DNA of 5,756 nt from an uncultured Erysipelotrichaceae bacterium (GTDB lineage: Bacteria > Bacillota_I > Bacilli_A > Erysipelotrichales > Erysipelotrichaceae): NCBI GenBank assembly GCA_902782955.1, contig CACZPD010000101.1, positions 1 through 5,756 on the forward strand, in the 5' to 3' direction. Shown piece by piece: positions 1,191-5,756 of this stretch; the first letter of the stretch is position 1, and the number at the start of each line of letters is the position of its first letter. The notes below the pieces were generated by a model. It saw only the letters and a program-made list of their open reading frames with translations, made no database searches and was not told the DNA's origin. The position numbers were made by a program, and so were the translations under genes.

Positions 1191-2126
1191 TTATACGAGC
1201 AATACCGCGATCAGTACATAGACAACAAGCGTAACGATCATGAACAATGACAGGAACGCTGACATGAACTGTTCATCCGATTCATCACTGCACAGCGGCA
1301 TCAGCTGCATTGGCAGCGCAAACCCGGTCGGGCACATGAAGTACAGCAGCACTGCGATCAGGTAGATCCGGTCCTGCATCAGGCCCGGGAAAAAGAGGAA
1401 GAATCCGGCAATGATCAGGGCGCCTGTCAGAATACGGGAAAGTCCGAGTTTCAGAATCGGTTTCAGCGTTCCGGCATCCACTTTCAGATCATACCCCAGG
1501 GAGAACAGGATGATTCCCGTTACCGGTGACACGATCATGGAAACAGCGTTGGTGTAGAGATTTCCGAAAGCGGAATTCTGCAGGATGTTATATACCCCTG
1601 TCACGTTCAGGACAAGACCCAGCGTGACCGCGATCACAAAAGAATTCGTGCATATTTTCTTCAGCAGCCCTTGCAGATCGACTCCTGAAGCGCTCTGGAT
1701 GGAGACCATGATTGGTACAAGCACGAACGCAACGATCGTTCCTGCCATATCGAAGGTGACCGTATTGATCGCATAGGAAGCGCCGACAATGGATGTATAC
1801 AGCGGCAGCGCTACATTCCCGCCTTCACAGGTCGTCAGAAGATACGGGGATATTTTTGCGTATTTCTCACCGGTGAACTTTGTCAGTACTTTCCCGATCA
1901 TGTAGGCAAGGATAAACCCGCCTGTCACATATGCGACGATCTGGAATGTGGACGGAGATAGACTTGCCGTGAAAATGGCATTGAAGATCAGAACCGGAAA
2001 AAGGATACCGAAGACGATCTTCCTTGCCCCGTCCTTCTGTTCCGCGGTGATCCATCGGCGCAGGCGTGCAGTTACGCCCAAAGCCATCATCAGAAATACC
2101 GGTAATAATGTTTCCGCTGCCTGCAT
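1191..2126 (-). CDS. AEC (auxin efflux carrier) family transporter, 311 aa
   Basis: Integral membrane secondary transporter of the AEC/Mem_trans family. Bacterial relatives with known roles move small organic acids such as malate or malonate. The protein is almost entirely hydrophobic, with about ten predicted membrane segments in two five-helix halves separated by a loop near residues 145-160. Family marks include GILFPVLIFNAIF (40-52), the Gly/Asn/Pro-broken helix CEGGNVALPLY (100-110) and the matching break CPTGFALP (265-272) in the second half, which correspond to the crossing unwound helices of this fold. The length of about 310 residues is normal. The start is fixed by AGGAGG (complement of 2134-2139), 7 bases before ATG. 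It is transcribed away from the flavoprotein/aldo-keto reductase operon, from a shared control region that contains the predicted LysR operator, so it probably carries the substrate or product of the neighbouring enzymes. That link is inference, and the substrate and direction of transport are unknown. Confidence 0.9.
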   Translation of the reverse strand: MQAAETLLPVFLMMALGVTARLRRWITAEQKDGARKIVFGILFPVLIFNAIFTASLSPSTFQIVAYVTGGFILAYMIGKVLTKFTGEKYAKISPYLLTTCEGGNVALPLYTSIVGASYAINTVTFDMAGTIVAFVLVPIMVSIQSASGVDLQGLLKKICTNSFVIAVTLGLVLNVTGVYNILQNSAFGNLYTNAVSMIVSPVTGIILFSLGYDLKVDAGTLKPILKLGLSRILTGALIIAGFFLFFPGLMQDRIYLIAVLLYFMCPTGFALPMQLMPLCSDESDEQFMSAFLSLFMIVTLVVYVLIAVLLV

Positions 2127-2170: not shown

Positions 2171-2200
2171 ACTATAAAGGTTTTTTCATGTTATTGCTAA
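2171..2200 (-). promoter_or_regulatory. putative promoter of the AEC transporter gene
   Basis: On the minus strand, TTAGCA (2200-2195) is followed by 18 bases and then TATAGT (2176-2171), five of six matches to the -10 consensus. The -35 box lies inside the conserved 12-mer shared with the lysR control region. The promoter upstream of the 73-residue protein has the same form and spacing (TTAGCG-N18-TATCAT), which raises confidence beyond a lone match. The expected 5' leader is about 40 bases. Confidence 0.55.
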
Positions 2201-2243
2201 TAGTTATCTTTTATATCATGTTATTCTGTTTTGGAATAGTTAT
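2187..2243 (+). repeat. paired short direct repeats in the AEC/flavoprotein control region
   Basis: CATGTTATT occurs at 2187-2195 and again at 2217-2225, 30 bp start to start. AATAGTTAT occurs at 2199-2207 and 2235-2243, 36 bp start to start. The two words come in the same order in both copies, separated by 3 bases in the first and 9 in the second. Spacings near whole multiples of the DNA helical turn would place the repeats on about the same face, as expected for adjacent regulator dimers. The 36-bp AATAG spacing recurs in the lysR/small-protein region; the CATGTTATT word does not. Confidence 0.6.
2196..2239 (+). promoter_or_regulatory. predicted LysR operator module, copy A (AEC / flavoprotein divergent region)
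   Basis: This 44-bp block matches the complement of 4966-4923 at 35 of 44 positions without a gap, although both lie between genes. It opens with the identical 12-mer GCTAATAGTTAT (2196-2207) and ends with the identical GGAATAG (2233-2239). Bases 2222-2238, TATTCTGTTTTGGAATA, form a dyad with one mismatched pair and a T-N11-A core (T2224, A2236), the usual half-site form for LysR-type regulators. The 12-mer overlaps the AEC -35 box and the dyad abuts a -10-like TATAAA (2241-2246) facing the flavoprotein gene. Sharing with the lysR control region makes the local LysR protein the likely binder. Binding itself is inferred. Confidence 0.72.
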
Positions 2244-2291
2244 AAATTTGAATCGTATTCTTGACTTAGAGTACGCTTTATCCTGTATGAT
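2241..2291 (+). promoter_or_regulatory. putative promoter(s) of the flavoprotein / aldo-keto reductase operon
   Basis: Two candidates are visible. The first is TATAAA (2241-2246), placed directly after the predicted operator exactly where the lysR copy has its TATAAT; it lacks a good -35, as is common for activator-dependent promoters. The second is TTGACT (2261-2266) with TATGAT (2286-2291), good boxes but a long 19-base spacer, which would leave a leader of only about 12 bases before the ATG. I favour the first because its placement is conserved, but cannot exclude use of both. Confidence 0.4.
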
Positions 2292-2297
2292 CACATC

Positions 2298-2305
2298 AGA
2301 AGGAG
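2298..2305 (+). promoter_or_regulatory. ribosome binding site that fixes the flavoprotein start
   Basis: AGAAGGAG ends 5 bases before the ATG at 2311. The same frame is open upstream and has an earlier ATG at 2188, but this strong site plus the FMN-domain start (MKILVLNGSP) directly after 2311 decide the start. A second ATG at 2307-2309 is out of frame and too close to the site. Confidence 0.85.
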
Positions 2306-2310
2306 CATGC

Positions 2311-2841
2311 ATGAAAATACTTGTACTTAACGGCAGCCCGCACGTGAACGGAGCGACAGCGGACATGGTCAGTGCCTTCCGGAAAGGCGCAGAAGAAGCG
2401 GGCAATGAAGTCATTGTCATACAGGCGGCGCATAAGAATATACGCGGATGCCTGGCATGCGAATACTGCCATGAAAAGGAAAAAGGCGTATGTATCCAGA
2501 AAGATGACATGCAAGAGATTTATCCGGAGATTCTCAGCGCCGATATGGTCGTATTCGCTTCCCCGATCTACTATTTCACTTTCTCCGCCCAGCTGCAGGC
2601 CCTGATCCACAGGACATATGCCATCGGCATACCTGAAAACGTGAAGAAGACTGCTCTGATCATGAGCTCAGGCGACAAGTTTGTCTACGCCGCAGCTATC
2701 ACAGAGTACTTCCAGGGTATCGTTGAATACTGGGGCGTGGAAAACACCGGCATCTTCACCGCCAACGGCGATGAAAACAAATCAGAGAAAAAACGACAGG
2801 AATTGTACCGCTTCGGCAGATCATTACAGGAGGAAAAGTAA
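2311..2841 (+). CDS. flavodoxin-fold NAD(P)H-dependent oxidoreductase, iron-sulfur flavoprotein-like, 176 aa
   Basis: Small cytoplasmic redox protein of the FMN-reductase/flavodoxin_2 group. The N-terminus MKILVLNGSPHVNGATADMV (residues 1-20) is the phosphate-binding strand-loop for FMN, and ASPIYYFTFSAQLQALIHR (83-101) is the typical isoalloxazine-side loop. Between them, C47, C50, C53 and C61 form CX2CX2CX7C followed by DDM (65-67). Compact CX2CX2CX4-7C motifs bind a 4Fe-4S cluster in iron-sulfur flavoproteins, so an Fe-S cluster as well as FMN is plausible. Many relatives without a proven cluster also keep some of these cysteines. The stop codon TAA overlaps the next ATG by one base (TAATG), so the aldo-keto reductase is probably translationally coupled and may exchange electrons with this protein. 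The gene lies downstream of a predicted LysR operator. The flavodoxin fold is secure; electron donor, acceptor and cluster are not shown. Confidence 0.92.
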   Translation: MKILVLNGSPHVNGATADMVSAFRKGAEEAGNEVIVIQAAHKNIRGCLACEYCHEKEKGVCIQKDDMQEIYPEILSADMVVFASPIYYFTFSAQLQALIHRTYAIGIPENVKKTALIMSSGDKFVYAAAITEYFQGIVEYWGVENTGIFTANGDENKSEKKRQELYRFGRSLQEEK

Positions 2842-3959
2842 TGGAACAGTTTGATTTTATTCAGAAGAATTTCGGATTCGGCATGATGCGCCTGCCGATG
2901 AACGGCGATGAAGTCAATTACGAAGAGACCTGCAGAATGGTGGATTACTTCATCGATCACGGTTTCAATTATTTCGATACTGCCCACGGCTACATTCAGG
3001 GAAAAAGCGAAATTGCAGTCCGTGAATGTGTGGTCAAACGTTATCCGCGGGATAAATTTATTCTCACAGACAAACTGACAGGCAGCTATTTCAAAAAGGA
3101 AGAAGAGATCCGTCCCCTCTTTCAGAAACAGCTGGAAGCCTGCGGTGTGGACTACTTTGATTTCTACCTGATGCATGCCCAGAACAGCAATATCTTTGAA
3201 GAGTTCAAAAAAGCCCGTGCATTTGAAACAGCGTTCGATCTGAAAAAAGAAGGCAAGGTAAAGCATGTCGGCATTTCCTTCCATGACAAAGCGGAAGTTC
3301 TGGACAGGATCCTCACCGAATACCCTGAGATCGAGATCGTACAGATCCAGTTCAATTACCTTGATTATGAAAGCGCGGCAGTGGAATCCCGCAAGGTATA
3401 CGAAGTATGCGAAAAGCATGACAAGCCTGTACTCGTCATGGAACCGGTCAAGGGAGGCAGCCTGGTCAATCTTCCGGCAGAAGCCAGAAAATACCTGGAT
3501 GATCTGCACGGCGGTTCCTACGCAAGCTATGCCGTCCGCTTCGCAGCCGGCTTCAAAAACATCCGCGTAGTTCTTTCCGGCATGAGCAATATGGAACAGA
3601 TGATCGACAACGTATCCTTCATGGAAGACTTCAAGCCTCTGAATGAAAAAGAGCTCGAAGCCGTCAGACAGGTCGTTGCGGTATATGACTCCATGCATGC
3701 GATCCCCTGCACTTCCTGCCGCTACTGCATCGAGGAGAGCTCCTGCCCGAAGAACATCCTGATCCCGGATCTGTTCTCCTGCTACAACGCGATGAAGATC
3801 TTCAATGACTGGAACGCATCACATTACTATGACAGGGCAGTCAGTGAACACGGCCGTGCTTCCGACTGCATCCGCTGCGGCAAATGTGAGCGCGTATGTC
3901 CCCAGCATCTCCCGATCCGCGACCTGCTGGCACAGACGGCGGAACAGTTCGACAAATAA
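2841..3959 (+). CDS. aldo/keto reductase with C-terminal 4Fe-4S ferredoxin-like domain, 372 aa
   Basis: Predicted oxidoreductase of the COG1453 type: a TIM-barrel aldo/keto reductase (about residues 1-280) fused to a cysteine-rich tail. The catalytic tetrad is intact: D46 and Y51 in FDTAHGY, K78 in TDKLTG and H112 in LMHAQN. Cofactor-side motifs follow, including GISFHD, QFNYLDYE, MEPVKGG and the late LSGMSNMEQM. The tail has two cysteine groups: C290, C293, C296, C302-Pro (CX2CX2CX5CP) and C343, C346, C349, C353-Pro (CX2CX2CX3CP), enough for two clusters. The first group has a wider last gap than the second. The start ATG overlaps the previous stop by one base and has AGGAGG at 2828-2833, 7 bases upstream. 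Coupling to the flavoprotein suggests a short electron chain NAD(P)H-AKR-FeS-FMN; direction and substrate are inferred or unknown. A terminator follows at once. Confidence 0.95.
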   Translation: MEQFDFIQKNFGFGMMRLPMNGDEVNYEETCRMVDYFIDHGFNYFDTAHGYIQGKSEIAVRECVVKRYPRDKFILTDKLTGSYFKKEEEIRPLFQKQLEACGVDYFDFYLMHAQNSNIFEEFKKARAFETAFDLKKEGKVKHVGISFHDKAEVLDRILTEYPEIEIVQIQFNYLDYESAAVESRKVYEVCEKHDKPVLVMEPVKGGSLVNLPAEARKYLDDLHGGSYASYAVRFAAGFKNIRVVLSGMSNMEQMIDNVSFMEDFKPLNEKELEAVRQVVAVYDSMHAIPCTSCRYCIEESSCPKNILIPDLFSCYNAMKIFNDWNASHYYDRAVSEHGRASDCIRCGKCERVCPQHLPIRDLLAQTAEQFDK

Positions 3960-3979
3960 AAAAGTCTGCAGACGCAGAC
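3958..3979 (-). terminator. terminator of the lysR-type gene (minus-strand reading)
   Basis: Stem GTCTGC (3964-3969) pairs with GCAGAC (3974-3979) around a 4-base loop. On the minus strand the hairpin is followed by six T residues (complement of A3963-A3958). It lies about 32 bases past the minus-strand stop at 4011-4013. Its T-run overlaps the aldo-keto reductase stop codon. Confidence 0.7.
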
Positions 3980-3982
3980 TGC

Positions 3983-4009
3983 GCGTATGCTGAAAGGCAT
4001 ACGCTTTTT
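3983..4009 (+). terminator. terminator of the flavoprotein / aldo-keto reductase operon
   Basis: A perfect 8-bp stem GCGTATGC (3983-3990) and GCATACGC (3997-4004) is closed by TGAAAG, which can form a U-G pair over a GAAA tetraloop. Five T residues follow (4005-4009). It sits 23 bases after the operon's last stop and ends directly before the stop codon of the convergent lysR-type gene. Confidence 0.9.
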
Positions 4010-4010
4010 A

Positions 4011-4892
4011 TTATTCTTCTGAAAATGACTGCCGGATCTGTTTCAGGAAACGCTCTGCGATCGGCGTGAAGCTCTGGTATTTATTCCAGATCAGATACAT
4101 TTTCATTTCCAGCTGCGGCTGCAGCGGACTGAATACAAGACCGCTTTCCGCTGATGTATTCACCAGGTTATTCAGGGTCAGAAGAATACCGAGGCCTTCC
4201 TTCGCAAACATGGATCCGTTGTAAGACAGCCGGAATGTCCCTTCGAGATGCAGGTCATCAAACTTCTCCCCTGCCCACGGACGGATGTCATTCTCCCAGC
4301 TCTGGTTTGAGCAGAACAGCGGCAGCCCGGCCAGGTCATCTGCCGTGACGCTGTCCTTTCCTGCCATCGGGGAATCCGCCGGAAATACCGCGCCGAAATA
4401 ATCCGATTCGGGAAAACATATATAGCTGTATTTTCTTTCATCCGGTGTTTCGCAGATCACCGCGAAATCCAGCAGTCCCTTATCCAGTTTTTCCGTAACC
4501 TGTTCCGTATCGCCGCTGCTGATATGGTAGCGCAGGCCCGGATAATATTCCTTAAAGGTACGGAGTTCCCGTGCCAGATGGCGGATCTGATATGACTCAG
4601 CCAGGCCGAAATACAGATCGCCGCCTGTGATCTCATCCAGCGAAAGGAATTCCTGTTCGATCTTGTCTGCCATGGATACCAGGTCCTCTGCCCGGTTCCT
4701 CAGCAGTATCCCTTCCTCCGTCAGGGAGATGCGGAAACTGTGGCGTATGAACAGTTTCTTGCCGAGTTCGTCTTCCAGGCTTTTCAGCTGTTTGGACAAA
4801 GTCGGCTGGGTGACATGCAGAAGGCTGGCAGCCCGGGTCATATTCTCTTCCCTGGCAACAGCCAGGAAGTATCTCAATGTGCGTATTTCCAT
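4011..4892 (-). CDS. LysR-family transcriptional regulator, 293 aa
   Basis: DNA-binding regulator that normally acts as a tetramer and responds to a small effector. The N-terminal winged helix-turn-helix is clear: LRYFLAVAREENMTRAASLLH then recognition helix TQPTLSKQLKSLEDELG (28-44), and the wing KLFIRHSFRISLTEEG (46-61). A linker helix leads to the periplasmic-binding-protein-like effector domain from about residue 90, starting at GGDLYFGLAES. The length is normal. The start is fixed by AAGGAG (complement of 4900-4905), 7 bases upstream of ATG. It is transcribed divergently from the small-protein/hydrolase genes and convergently to the aldo-keto reductase operon. Its own control region carries a 44-bp module repeated upstream of the AEC and flavoprotein genes, so it probably autoregulates and controls all four flanking units. 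The effector cannot be read from the sequence. Confidence 0.96.
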   Translation of the reverse strand: MEIRTLRYFLAVAREENMTRAASLLHVTQPTLSKQLKSLEDELGKKLFIRHSFRISLTEEGILLRNRAEDLVSMADKIEQEFLSLDEITGGDLYFGLAESYQIRHLARELRTFKEYYPGLRYHISSGDTEQVTEKLDKGLLDFAVICETPDERKYSYICFPESDYFGAVFPADSPMAGKDSVTADDLAGLPLFCSNQSWENDIRPWAGEKFDDLHLEGTFRLSYNGSMFAKEGLGILLTLNNLVNTSAESGLVFSPLQPQLEMKMYLIWNKYQSFTPIAERFLKQIRQSFSEE

Positions 4893-4916
4893 TTTTATAC
4901 TCCTTAATATACAGAT

Positions 4917-4945
4917 ATTATACTATTCCATTACGGAATATCACG
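4917..4945 (-). promoter_or_regulatory. putative lysR promoter overlapping the operator dyad
   Basis: On the minus strand a perfect TATAAT (4922-4917) lies 24 bases before the start codon. The hexamer 17 bases upstream, CGTGAT (4945-4940), is a poor -35. The 17-bp dyad (4924-4940) fills the spacer, so bound regulator would block polymerase, the usual picture of LysR autorepression. Confidence 0.6.
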
Positions 4946-4966
4946 ATATGCATTATAACTATTAGC
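4923..4966 (-). promoter_or_regulatory. predicted LysR operator module, copy B (lysR / small-protein divergent region)
   Basis: Read on the minus strand, this block begins with the same GCTAATAGTTAT 12-mer (4966-4955) and ends with GGAATAG (4929-4923), as in copy A at 2196-2239, with identical internal spacing. Bases 4924-4940, TATTCCATTACGGAATA on the plus strand, are a perfect 6-bp inverted repeat around 5 bases and contain a T-N11-A core (T4926, A4938). Position between a LysR gene and its divergent neighbour is the classical site for such an operator. The perfect dyad here against one mismatch in copy A may mean tighter binding. Confidence 0.78.
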
Positions 4967-4991
4967 GAAATTTCTTCTTCCTTCCTATCAT
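4962..4991 (+). promoter_or_regulatory. putative promoter of the small-protein / hydrolase operon
   Basis: TTAGCG (4962-4967), 18 bases, then TATCAT (4986-4991), five of six matches to the -10 consensus. The -35 is part of the conserved 12-mer of operator copy B. Form and spacing equal those of the AEC promoter. A second possible -10, TATAAC (4954-4959), overlaps the 12-mer but has no convincing -35. The leader would be about 27 bases. Confidence 0.5.
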
Positions 4992-5024: not shown

Positions 5025-5246
5025 ATGGAACAGAAACTGCAAAAGATGCTGGAAAACATGGAAGATGCGGGATGCGCTGACAGCGACCTGAAGAAAGCGG
5101 AGCACCTGTATCAGAACGGTGACATGAAAGATCTGATCCTGTTTCTGCGCAGATGCCGGTGCAGCCGCATGGAGGAACTCCGCGAAAGTCAGCGGAAAGT
5201 TGACTGTCTGGATTATCTGATCCGGCAGACAAAGACAGAACTGTAA
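5025..5246 (+). CDS. small cysteine-containing protein of unknown function, 73 aa
   Basis: I recognise no named family. The gene looks real: CGGAGG (5014-5019) lies 5 bases before ATG, it has an open frame of normal codon use, and it is followed after 15 bases by another well-signalled gene. The protein is highly charged and predicted almost wholly helical, with no signal peptide or membrane segment. Cysteines are C17, C44 and C46 (in RRCRCSRMEEL), and C61. The C-terminal half (about 47-70, MEELRESQRKVDCLDYLIRQ) has a heptad-like amphipathic pattern that resembles dimerisation helices at the ends of MerR-type regulators, but there is no DNA-binding domain. It could be a small partner or redox-responsive modulator of the neighbouring enzymes or of the LysR protein. 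That is a guess. Confidence 0.82.
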   Translation: MEQKLQKMLENMEDAGCADSDLKKAEHLYQNGDMKDLILFLRRCRCSRMEELRESQRKVDCLDYLIRQTKTEL

Positions 5247-5261
5247 AAAAGGAGACAGAAC

Positions 5262-5756
5262 ATGATCAGAAAAGAAGAACTGAAACTCACACAGGATTGG
5301 GACAAAACATTTCCGAAAAGCGATAAAGTAGATCACTCTAAGGTAACATTTGTGAACCGTTACGGCATCACCCTGGCGGCTGACCTGTACATTCCGGTCA
5401 ATGCCGGAGACAAGCTGCCGGCCATCGCCGTATCCGGTCCGTTCGGTGCTGTCAAGGAACAGTGCTCCGGTCTGTATGCGCAGACTATGGCGGAACGCGG
5501 ATTCATGACCCTGGCATTTGATCCGTCCTTTACAGGCGAAAGCGGCGGGAATGTCCGTTATATGGCAAGTCCTGACATCAATACCGAAGACTTCATGGCA
5601 GCGGTGGATTTTCTTTCCCTGCATGAAAAGGCAGATCCGGAACGCATCGGCATCATCGGGATCTGCGGATGGGGCGGCATGTCCATCAACGCAGCTGCGC
5701 TTGATCCGCGCATCAAGGCTACTGCCGCAATGACCATGTATGATATGACACGCGTC
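5262..5756 (+). CDS. alpha/beta hydrolase, YcjY/dienelactone-hydrolase-like (3' end missing)
   Basis: 165 codons are visible before the window edge; relatives are about 300-330 residues, so roughly half is missing, including the region expected to hold the catalytic acid and His. The start has AAGGAG (5249-5254), 7 bases upstream. Fold marks in order are the strand-pair VTFVNRYGITLAADLYIP (28-45), an oxyanion-side loop AVSGPFGAVKEQ (56-67), LAFDPSFTGESGG (84-96), and the nucleophile-elbow region RIGIIGICGWGGMSINAAA (128-146). The C-terminal part seen (DPRIKA, TMYDMTRV) fits cytoplasmic hydrolases of the YcjY/S15-like group. The elbow lacks a Ser: in register with CASGG-type elbows of this group the nucleophile position is W137, while C135 could instead serve as a Cys nucleophile as in dienelactone hydrolase. 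Catalytic activity is therefore open. It probably forms an operon with the 73-residue protein under the LysR-controlled divergent promoter. Confidence 0.88.
   Translation, partial: MIRKEELKLTQDWDKTFPKSDKVDHSKVTFVNRYGITLAADLYIPVNAGDKLPAIAVSGPFGAVKEQCSGLYAQTMAERGFMTLAFDPSFTGESGGNVRYMASPDINTEDFMAAVDFLSLHEKADPERIGIIGICGWGGMSINAAALDPRIKATAAMTMYDMTRV

What the first reader, a model, noticed from the sequence alone, without database searches (positions are those of the whole stretch)
2196..4966. The same 44-bp operator module sits in two divergent control regions and ties four transcription units to one LysR regulator
Directly seen: 2196-2239 (+) and 4966-4923 (-) agree at 35 of 44 positions without gaps. 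Agreement is concentrated in an exact 12-mer (GCTAATAGTTAT), ATATC, TATTC and GGAATAG, and is absent from the 5-base stretch just after the 12-mer and the dyad centre, as expected for protein contacts rather than recent duplication. Each copy has a 17-bp dyad with the T-N11-A core of LysR-type sites. The two regions lie about 2.7 kb apart and flank genes of different families. This predicts a local regulon: AEC permease, Fe-S flavoprotein plus aldo-keto reductase, lysR itself, and small protein plus hydrolase.
Basis: partly seen in the sequence, partly recalled or inferred. Interest (0 to 1): 0.78.

Follow-up and report, generated by a model that had tools for sequence, protein, structure and literature searches.

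The report
Shared LysR operator in two promoters
Two control regions in this bacterium carry the same landing site for one gene switch, a site also found in many related gut bacteria beside the same kinds of enzyme genes, so this is a real but conventional small regulatory circuit with one newly wired transporter.

Summary
The repeat is real: 35 of 44 positions, 0 of 5000 shuffles as good. It is most likely the operator of the window's LysR. The copy beside lysR recurs upstream of lysR in 74 of 76 related loci; a profile trained on those copies scores site 1 at 39 bits, control maximum -6. Nearly all copies hold a T-N11-A dyad and, at one fixed spacing, a -10-like box for the gene on one side: 124 of 126 copies beside lysR and 17 of 17 others have at least 4 of 6 letters, placing the dyad near -66. 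So the module is a directional LysR-type promoter: site 2 serves the small protein and hydrolase and overlaps lysR's own promoter; site 1 serves the AEC permease. The four-unit claim is partly supported: the flavoprotein-aldo-keto reductase operon lies on the side out of register, and its two nearest relatives lack the module. No module was found beside AEC or close flavoprotein relatives elsewhere. Other copies precede mainly hydrolases and aldo-keto reductases, suggesting a carbonyl or electrophile response (inferred). Binding is untested. Ordinary in kind.

The parts
2196..2241 (+). site 1: 46-nt operator module (44 nt in the finding), read so that the target (AEC permease) lies to its left
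   Evidence: 35/44 identity to site 2; 39.0 bits on a profile built only from lysR-upstream sites of related loci, reversed control maximum -6.2
2222..2238 (+). site 1 recognition dyad TATTC-N7-GAATA, T-N11-A = T2224/A2236, centre 2230
   Evidence: sequence; T and A of T-N11-A kept in 142/143 and 143/143 modules (both letters are in the search pattern, which allowed 3 mismatches)
2195..2200 (-). putative -35 of the AEC promoter (TTAGCA), overlapping the conserved 12-mer
   Evidence: sequence; 18-bp spacer to the -10; inferred
2171..2176 (-). putative -10 of the AEC promoter (TATAGT), at the conserved offset -25 from the module start
   Evidence: 5 of 6 to the consensus; chance of >=5/6 at one fixed offset 0.011 from the composition of that spacer
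1191..2126 (-). AEC permease, proposed target of site 1
   Evidence: PF03547, 30.4 bits; adjacent and in register
2261..2291 (+). putative own promoter of the flavoprotein-AKR operon (TTGACT 2261-2266; TGTATG 2284-2289 with a 17-bp spacer or TATGAT 2286-2291 with 19)
   Evidence: same letters in sister L001, which lacks site 1 and AEC at this place
2311..2841 (+). NADPH-dependent FMN reductase / flavodoxin-like protein; membership in the regulon uncertain
   Evidence: PF03358 74.3 bits, PF02525 60.8
2841..3959 (+). aldo-keto reductase with C-terminal 4Fe-4S domain; membership uncertain
   Evidence: PF00248 144.8 bits, PF13187 32.3 bits
4011..4892 (-). LysR-type regulator, presumed to bind both sites
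   Evidence: PF00126 and PF03466; module accompanies its relatives
4921..4966 (-). site 2: operator module between lysR and the small protein-hydrolase operon
   Evidence: 74 of 76 relatives carry it; 61.8 bits (the identical site of L001 is in the training set)
4924..4940 (-). site 2 recognition dyad TATTC-N7-GAATA, T-N11-A = 4938/4926, centre 4932
   Evidence: sequence
4952..4957 (-). lysR -10 box (TATAAT) inside the module
   Evidence: at least 5/6 of TATAAT in 116/126 lysR-adjacent modules against 11/17 without lysR, Fisher p 0.0045
4962..4967 (+). putative -35 (TTAGCG) of the small protein-hydrolase operon
   Evidence: CGCTAA is part of the conserved consensus; role inferred
4986..4991 (+). 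putative -10 (TATCAT) of the small protein-hydrolase operon
   Evidence: offset -25 register, 5 of 6
5025..5246 (+). 73-aa helical protein, first gene of the site 2 target operon
   Evidence: no Pfam or NCBIfam match; 52 homologues; model pLDDT 96
5262..5756 (+). alpha/beta hydrolase, cut by the window end
   Evidence: PF02129/PF01738; full-length relative in L002 matches PA2218 (2hdw) at 8.9e-115

Best explanation
Both copies are operators of the window's LysR-type regulator, and each is a directional promoter module. A T-N11-A dyad (recognition site) sits about 66 bp upstream of the predicted start of the target transcript. A second block (the 12-mer GCTAATAGTTAT, next to GAATATC-AT-GATATTC in most relatives) runs over the target's weak -35 (TTAGC), where a LysR tetramer would help RNA polymerase. 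The target's -10 stands at a fixed distance. Site 2 drives the small protein-hydrolase operon and contains lysR's own -10, so LysR bound there should repress itself. Site 1 is a second copy, so far seen only in this lineage, that drives the AEC permease and lacks the lysR -10. The flavoprotein-AKR operon on the other side of site 1 has its own promoter-like stretch and is only possibly affected. Shown: repeat, conservation, dyad, register, sister comparison. Inferred: binding, activation, autorepression, start sites, and the effector (perhaps a reactive carbonyl or electrophile, judged from the enzymes).
For: Repeat beyond chance. Footprint: module upstream of lysR in 74 of 76 loci, 74 of 74 on the lysR strand, with variable flanks and variable dyad centre. 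In 80 loci plus window (991 kb), hits above 12 bits were the 74 lysR-proximal ones, the two window sites and three weak backward readings of the same palindromes. Pattern scan: 61 of 61 lysR-bearing genomes given, 38 of 272 family genomes, 18 of 391 sampled from the class of G003; reversed control 0 in every genome. -10 register: mean 4.86 of 6 at offset -25, at most 2.83 at any other offset tested; of 17 modules without adjacent lysR, 17 have at least 4 of 6, mean 5.0, next best offset 3.35; chance per site about 0.07. Target genes of those 17: 7 hydrolases or esterases, 6 aldo-keto reductases, 1 cyclophilin-like, 1 AEC (window), 2 none nearby. T-N11-A often around -65 and an activation site at -35 are the described LTTR layout (PMC8407307, passages).
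Against: No binding data. No module was found beside AEC relatives (24 loci L179-L202, best 1.3 bits) or the 14 closest flavoprotein relatives (L203-L216, all negative) (flanks about 1.5 kb, shorter at contig ends). The window's genome is not held, so its full regulon is unknown. Site 1 scores lower than most copies (39.0; lysR-adjacent median 66.2, 5th percentile 39.8, minimum 7.1). Of 126 lysR-adjacent modules 5 have no recognised target and 1 an ABC-type hit. Start sites are predicted only.
Confidence: 0.8

Rival explanations
1. One reading: site 1 is a true two-way operator, so LysR controls AEC and the flavoprotein-AKR operon alike, giving four co-regulated units.
For: The site 1 dyad centre (2230) is about equally far from both predicted starts (about 66 to AEC, about 68 to the flavoprotein; coordinates). 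A small extra dyad GAAT-CGT-ATTC (2250-2260, by eye) lies beside the flavoprotein -35. Aldo-keto reductases and FMN reductases recur as targets or downstream genes of the module.
Against: Sister L001 keeps the operon and its promoter-like stretch without the module; G002's orthologous operon has none; 15 of 15 other assessed modules without lysR have no divergent predicted gene on that side; the extra dyad is not in the register of the conserved block (by eye).
Confidence: 0.3
2. Site 1 is a relic: an operator that arrived with a DNA piece (for example from a lysR-hydrolase spacer) and no longer works.
For: Seen only in this window, lower score (39.0 bits), no lysR -10 box.
Against: Dyad and 12-mer intact; target -10 in register (chance 0.011 at one offset); the 40-nt flank of site 1 stands out against no other module compared (identity at most 22, mean 16.7).
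Confidence: 0.12
3. The repeat is an operator of some other regulator, and lysR is only a neighbour.
For: Binding was not tested.
Against: lysR lies within 700 nt in 126 of 143 distinct copies (many loci were fetched through lysR, so this count leans that way) and 61 of 61 lysR-bearing genomes given have the module, with the T-N11-A layout.
Confidence: 0.05
4. Chance or AT-rich composition.
For: Both spacers are about 66% A+T.
Against: 0 of 5000 shuffles; control maximum -6 bits against 39.
Confidence: 0.005

Closest known systems
LysR-type regulators with divergent target and autorepression, general layout (PMC8407307, passages)
   Same: T-N11-A dyad often around -65, second block at the target -35, lysR divergent from its target with overlapping promoters
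   Different: A long (46-nt), strongly conserved whole module that also occurs, with its -10 spacing, away from lysR
CidR (NCBIfam NF047520)
   Same: Best NCBIfam match of the regulator, 130.8 bits over its length
   Different: Cut-off is 415 bits; proposed targets here are hydrolases and reductases, not the cidABC operon named by the model
LpLttR of Lactiplantibacillus plantarum (PMC9019972, passages)
   Same: Firmicute LysR regulator with an AT-rich 15-base box, (A/T)TAC-N7-(G/A)(T/A)a(T/A), at several promoters
   Different: Different half-sites (here TATTC/GAATA) and other targets; no sequence comparison of the proteins was made
YhaJ (PMC11739112, passages)
   Same: T-N11-A-like operator and recognition/activation-site model
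   Different: Different organism and targets; no sequence comparison was made here

Membership tests
LysR-type transcriptional regulator (protein) | N-terminal HTH_1 and LysR substrate-binding domain | tested here: met
   PF00126 77.5 bits, PF03466 80.5 bits, both above cut-off
LysR-type operator | T-N11-A inside a dyad | tested here: met
   2224/2236 and 4938/4926; 142/143 and 143/143 modules
LysR-type operator | recognition dyad near -65 of the target | tested here: met
   about -66 reckoned from the -10 register; start sites are predicted, not mapped
LysR-type operator | activation block overlapping the -35 | tested here: inconclusive
   conserved CGCTAA/TTAGCG lies 18 bp from the -10; its role is inferred
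LysR-type operator | binds its LysR protein | not testable with these tools
   needs gel shift or footprint
LysR-type regulon | autoregulation of lysR | not testable with these tools
   lysR -10 lies inside the module, suggestive only
CidR equivalog (NF047520) | score at or above the curated cut-off | tested here: not met
   130.8 against 415 bits
Flavoprotein-AKR operon as member of this regulon | operator kept with the operon in relatives | tested here: not met
   absent in L001/G001 and G002

The most novel reading that the evidence does not exclude
A LysR regulator and its whole 46-nt promoter module behave as a portable control part in gut anaerobes: the module has been placed, spacing and all, before hydrolases, aldo-keto reductases, cyclophilin-like proteins and, in this lineage, a permease, forming a reactive-carbonyl or electrophile response; the 73-aa helical protein, shaped like the dimer half of a MerR regulator, tunes the circuit.
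Probability: 0.2. Interest if true: 0.55.

Novelty: new member of a known kind. Interest (0 to 1): 0.35.

Why it matters
It gives a well-resolved candidate operator for a LysR family that is widespread in gut and rumen genomes, with a fixed target-promoter register that lets its regulon be read from sequence. It also shows a candidate regulon member (AEC) beside a sister genome without it. No paper on this system turned up in the search listings, which cover only the open-licence library and those term sets.

Tried and rejected
Own-genome scan: not possible, no genome held. First pattern had one base too few in the dyad centre and matched only 13 of 42 genomes; corrected. First ORF caller picked antisense frames; replaced by a codon-scored one. 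RNA element: no Rfam match up to E 0.5 in the window. Plasmid origin of the site 1 spacer: no match in the plasmid collection. Recent segmental duplication: flanks agree at 14 of 40. Donor of AEC plus site 1: none seen; none of the 80 lysR loci shows an AEC match above 60 bits. CidR identity rejected by score. Structure match of the small protein: MerR family 3gp4 at TM 0.69 but E 2.5, so a hint only. The target names use query proteins some of which come from those same loci (L154, L165, L139, L042), so self-matches there are circular; the enzyme classes of those queries come from Pfam.

Dropped rows and limits: 4 of 80 loci (L051, L076, L079, L080) lack the lysR start and were left out of the 76; misses there are L061 and L075. 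Not every place found was fetched, so the 143 distinct modules are those in fetched sequence. One search was given 61 genomes reached through 61 of the 80 loci. L250 was not assessed for orientation. L178 has a DkgA-like hit 2.7 kb away and is counted as no target nearby; L250 has none. L217 (60% flavoprotein) has a 4.2-bit hit; L223 and L225 (50% flavoproteins) have module-like hits of 19.6 and 7.8 bits. PMC5002191 was looked at in passages only and is not used.

Full report
Observation. The two stretches agree at 35 of 44 positions, with an exact 12-mer; no shuffle of 5000 came near (best 29). The match is the strongest inverted repeat of the window. The 40 bases beside them on the target side agree at 14 positions, so the agreement is confined to the module.

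Genes. 1-1119 ABC transporter ATPase (open at the window edge), 1191-2126 AEC permease on the minus strand, 2311-2841 FMN reductase-like flavoprotein, 2841-3959 aldo-keto reductase with 4Fe-4S domain, 4011-4892 LysR regulator on the minus strand, 5025-5246 a 73-aa protein without family match, 5262 onward an alpha/beta hydrolase.

Footprint of site 2. One scan of genome contigs with a LysR alignment gave 80 loci (best-segment identity 61-98%), with record titles naming Erysipelotrichaceae, Oscillospiraceae, Ruminococcaceae, Lachnospiraceae and others, and two records of Bifidobacterium boum and Pseudoscardovia suis. lysR usually stands divergent from the small protein and hydrolase. Of 76 loci with the lysR start, 74 carry the module upstream on the lysR strand; L061 and L075 do not reach the threshold. 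Among 68 non-redundant rows the conserved letters are CGCTAATGGTTATAATGAATATC-TGATATTC, then seven freer bases, then GCATATCA, plus an ATA triplet about 20 bases before the module and a TTGAC/TTTAC-like block between.

Site 1 as a second copy. A profile trained on lysR-upstream sites of relatives scores site 1 at 39.0 bits and site 2 at 61.8 (the identical site of L001 is in the training set); one-strand shuffled and reversed controls peak at -23 and -6. In 991 kb the other hits above 12 bits were the 74 lysR-proximal ones and three weak backward readings of the same palindromes.

Genome scans. With the corrected pattern and up to 3 mismatches, 61 of 61 lysR-bearing genomes matched, mostly once and sometimes two or three times; 38 of 272 genomes of the sister's family matched; 18 of 391 genomes sampled from the class of G003 matched. 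The reversed pattern matched in none of them. The sister genome G001 has two modules: one at lysR and one, with 3 mismatches, before an aldo-keto reductase on another contig.

Direction of the module. Over the distinct modules that have 45 bases upstream, the -10 consensus on the target strand peaks at one offset (mean 4.86 of 6; next best 2.83). Both window sites have 5 of 6 there: TATAGT at 2176-2171 towards AEC and TATCAT at 4986-4991 towards the small protein. Of 143 distinct modules in fetched sequence, 126 have lysR within 700 nt and 17 do not; 124 of 126 and 17 of 17 have at least 4 of 6 at that offset (chance per site about 0.07). Counting 7 bases from the -10 puts the dyad centre about 66 bp upstream, where LysR recognition sites are often found (PMC8407307, passages). 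The conserved CGCTAA then falls on the target's -35 (TTAGCG, 18-bp spacer). TATAAT inside the module looks like lysR's own -10: 116 of 126 lysR-adjacent modules have at least 5 of 6, against 11 of 17 others (Fisher p 0.0045). Site 1 reads TATCTT there.

What the module controls. On the target side of the 126 lysR-adjacent modules, 108 show the hydrolase among the first three recognised genes, often behind the small protein and followed by FMN reductases, DkgA-like reductases or cyclophilin-like proteins; 5 show nothing recognised (domains). The 17 modules without lysR stand before 7 hydrolases or esterases, 6 aldo-keto reductases, 1 cyclophilin-like protein, the window's AEC permease, and 2 with nothing recognised nearby (see the circularity remark in Tried and rejected). 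A reactive-carbonyl or electrophile response is my inference from these enzyme classes.

The flavoprotein-AKR operon. The sister L001 has ABC, flavoprotein, AKR and lysR in the same order but lacks AEC and site 1 between ABC and flavoprotein; the flavoprotein's promoter-like stretch from CTTGACTTAGAG through TGTATGATCA is unchanged. G002 has the orthologous operon (85% and 83%) with a different upstream and no module. In 15 of 15 other assessed modules without lysR the predicted gene on the non-target side is not divergent. Against this, the site 1 dyad is about equally far (66 and 68) from both predicted starts and a small extra dyad lies at 2250-2260, so a two-way effect cannot be excluded.

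Conservation of site 1. AEC relatives at E <= 1e-20 occur in 19 of 272 family genomes, not in G001; none of the 24 loci fetched has a module (best 1.3 bits). The flavoprotein has relatives in 71 of 272 genomes, of which 30 loci were fetched; the 14 closest (67% or more, L203-L216) have none. Some relatives near 50% lie in lysR-hydrolase loci with modules (L220, L227, L228) and two (L223, L225) have weak module-like hits. Flanks were about 1.5 kb, shorter at contig ends. Whether AEC plus site 1 was gained here or lost in the sister is open.

Verdict. A real pair of LysR-type operators and a small regulon, conventional in kind; three of the four proposed units are well placed (AEC and hydrolase operon by register, lysR by overlap), the fourth is not supported. 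DNA binding and regulation remain to be shown.

Noticed in passing
window 5025-5246: 73-aa protein with nearly invariant Cys17 and invariant Arg45-Cys46 among 21 aligned sequences and a long C-terminal helix (model pLDDT 96); best solved-structure resemblance is to MerR regulators (3gp4, TM 0.69, E 2.5; also HiNmlR 5d90, E 7.1), not significant. It may be a MerR remnant without a DNA-binding part.
   Followed up: partly
L064, L069: LysR at 72% and 71% with hydrolase at 82% in Pseudoscardovia suis and Bifidobacterium boum records, with the module upstream, suggests transfer of the cassette between phyla; no tree was made.
   Followed up: no
L032, L039, L052, L059, L066, L067, L071: Seven loci have the module 82-202 nt from lysR instead of 10-32, several with repetitive inserts, yet the module is kept (loci matched by eye).
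   Followed up: no
L012 3138-4010; L160 3598-4443: DUF3737 proteins lie in module-headed operons; the paper search for DUF3737 returned nothing.
   Followed up: no
L042 6534-7700: Fusion of an alpha/beta hydrolase with a cyclophilin-like domain, on the target side of a module.
   Followed up: no
L130 1707-2624: An AEC-like permease gene lies just upstream of a module-headed aldo-keto reductase, same strand, not divergent (named by eye from its sequence).
   Followed up: no
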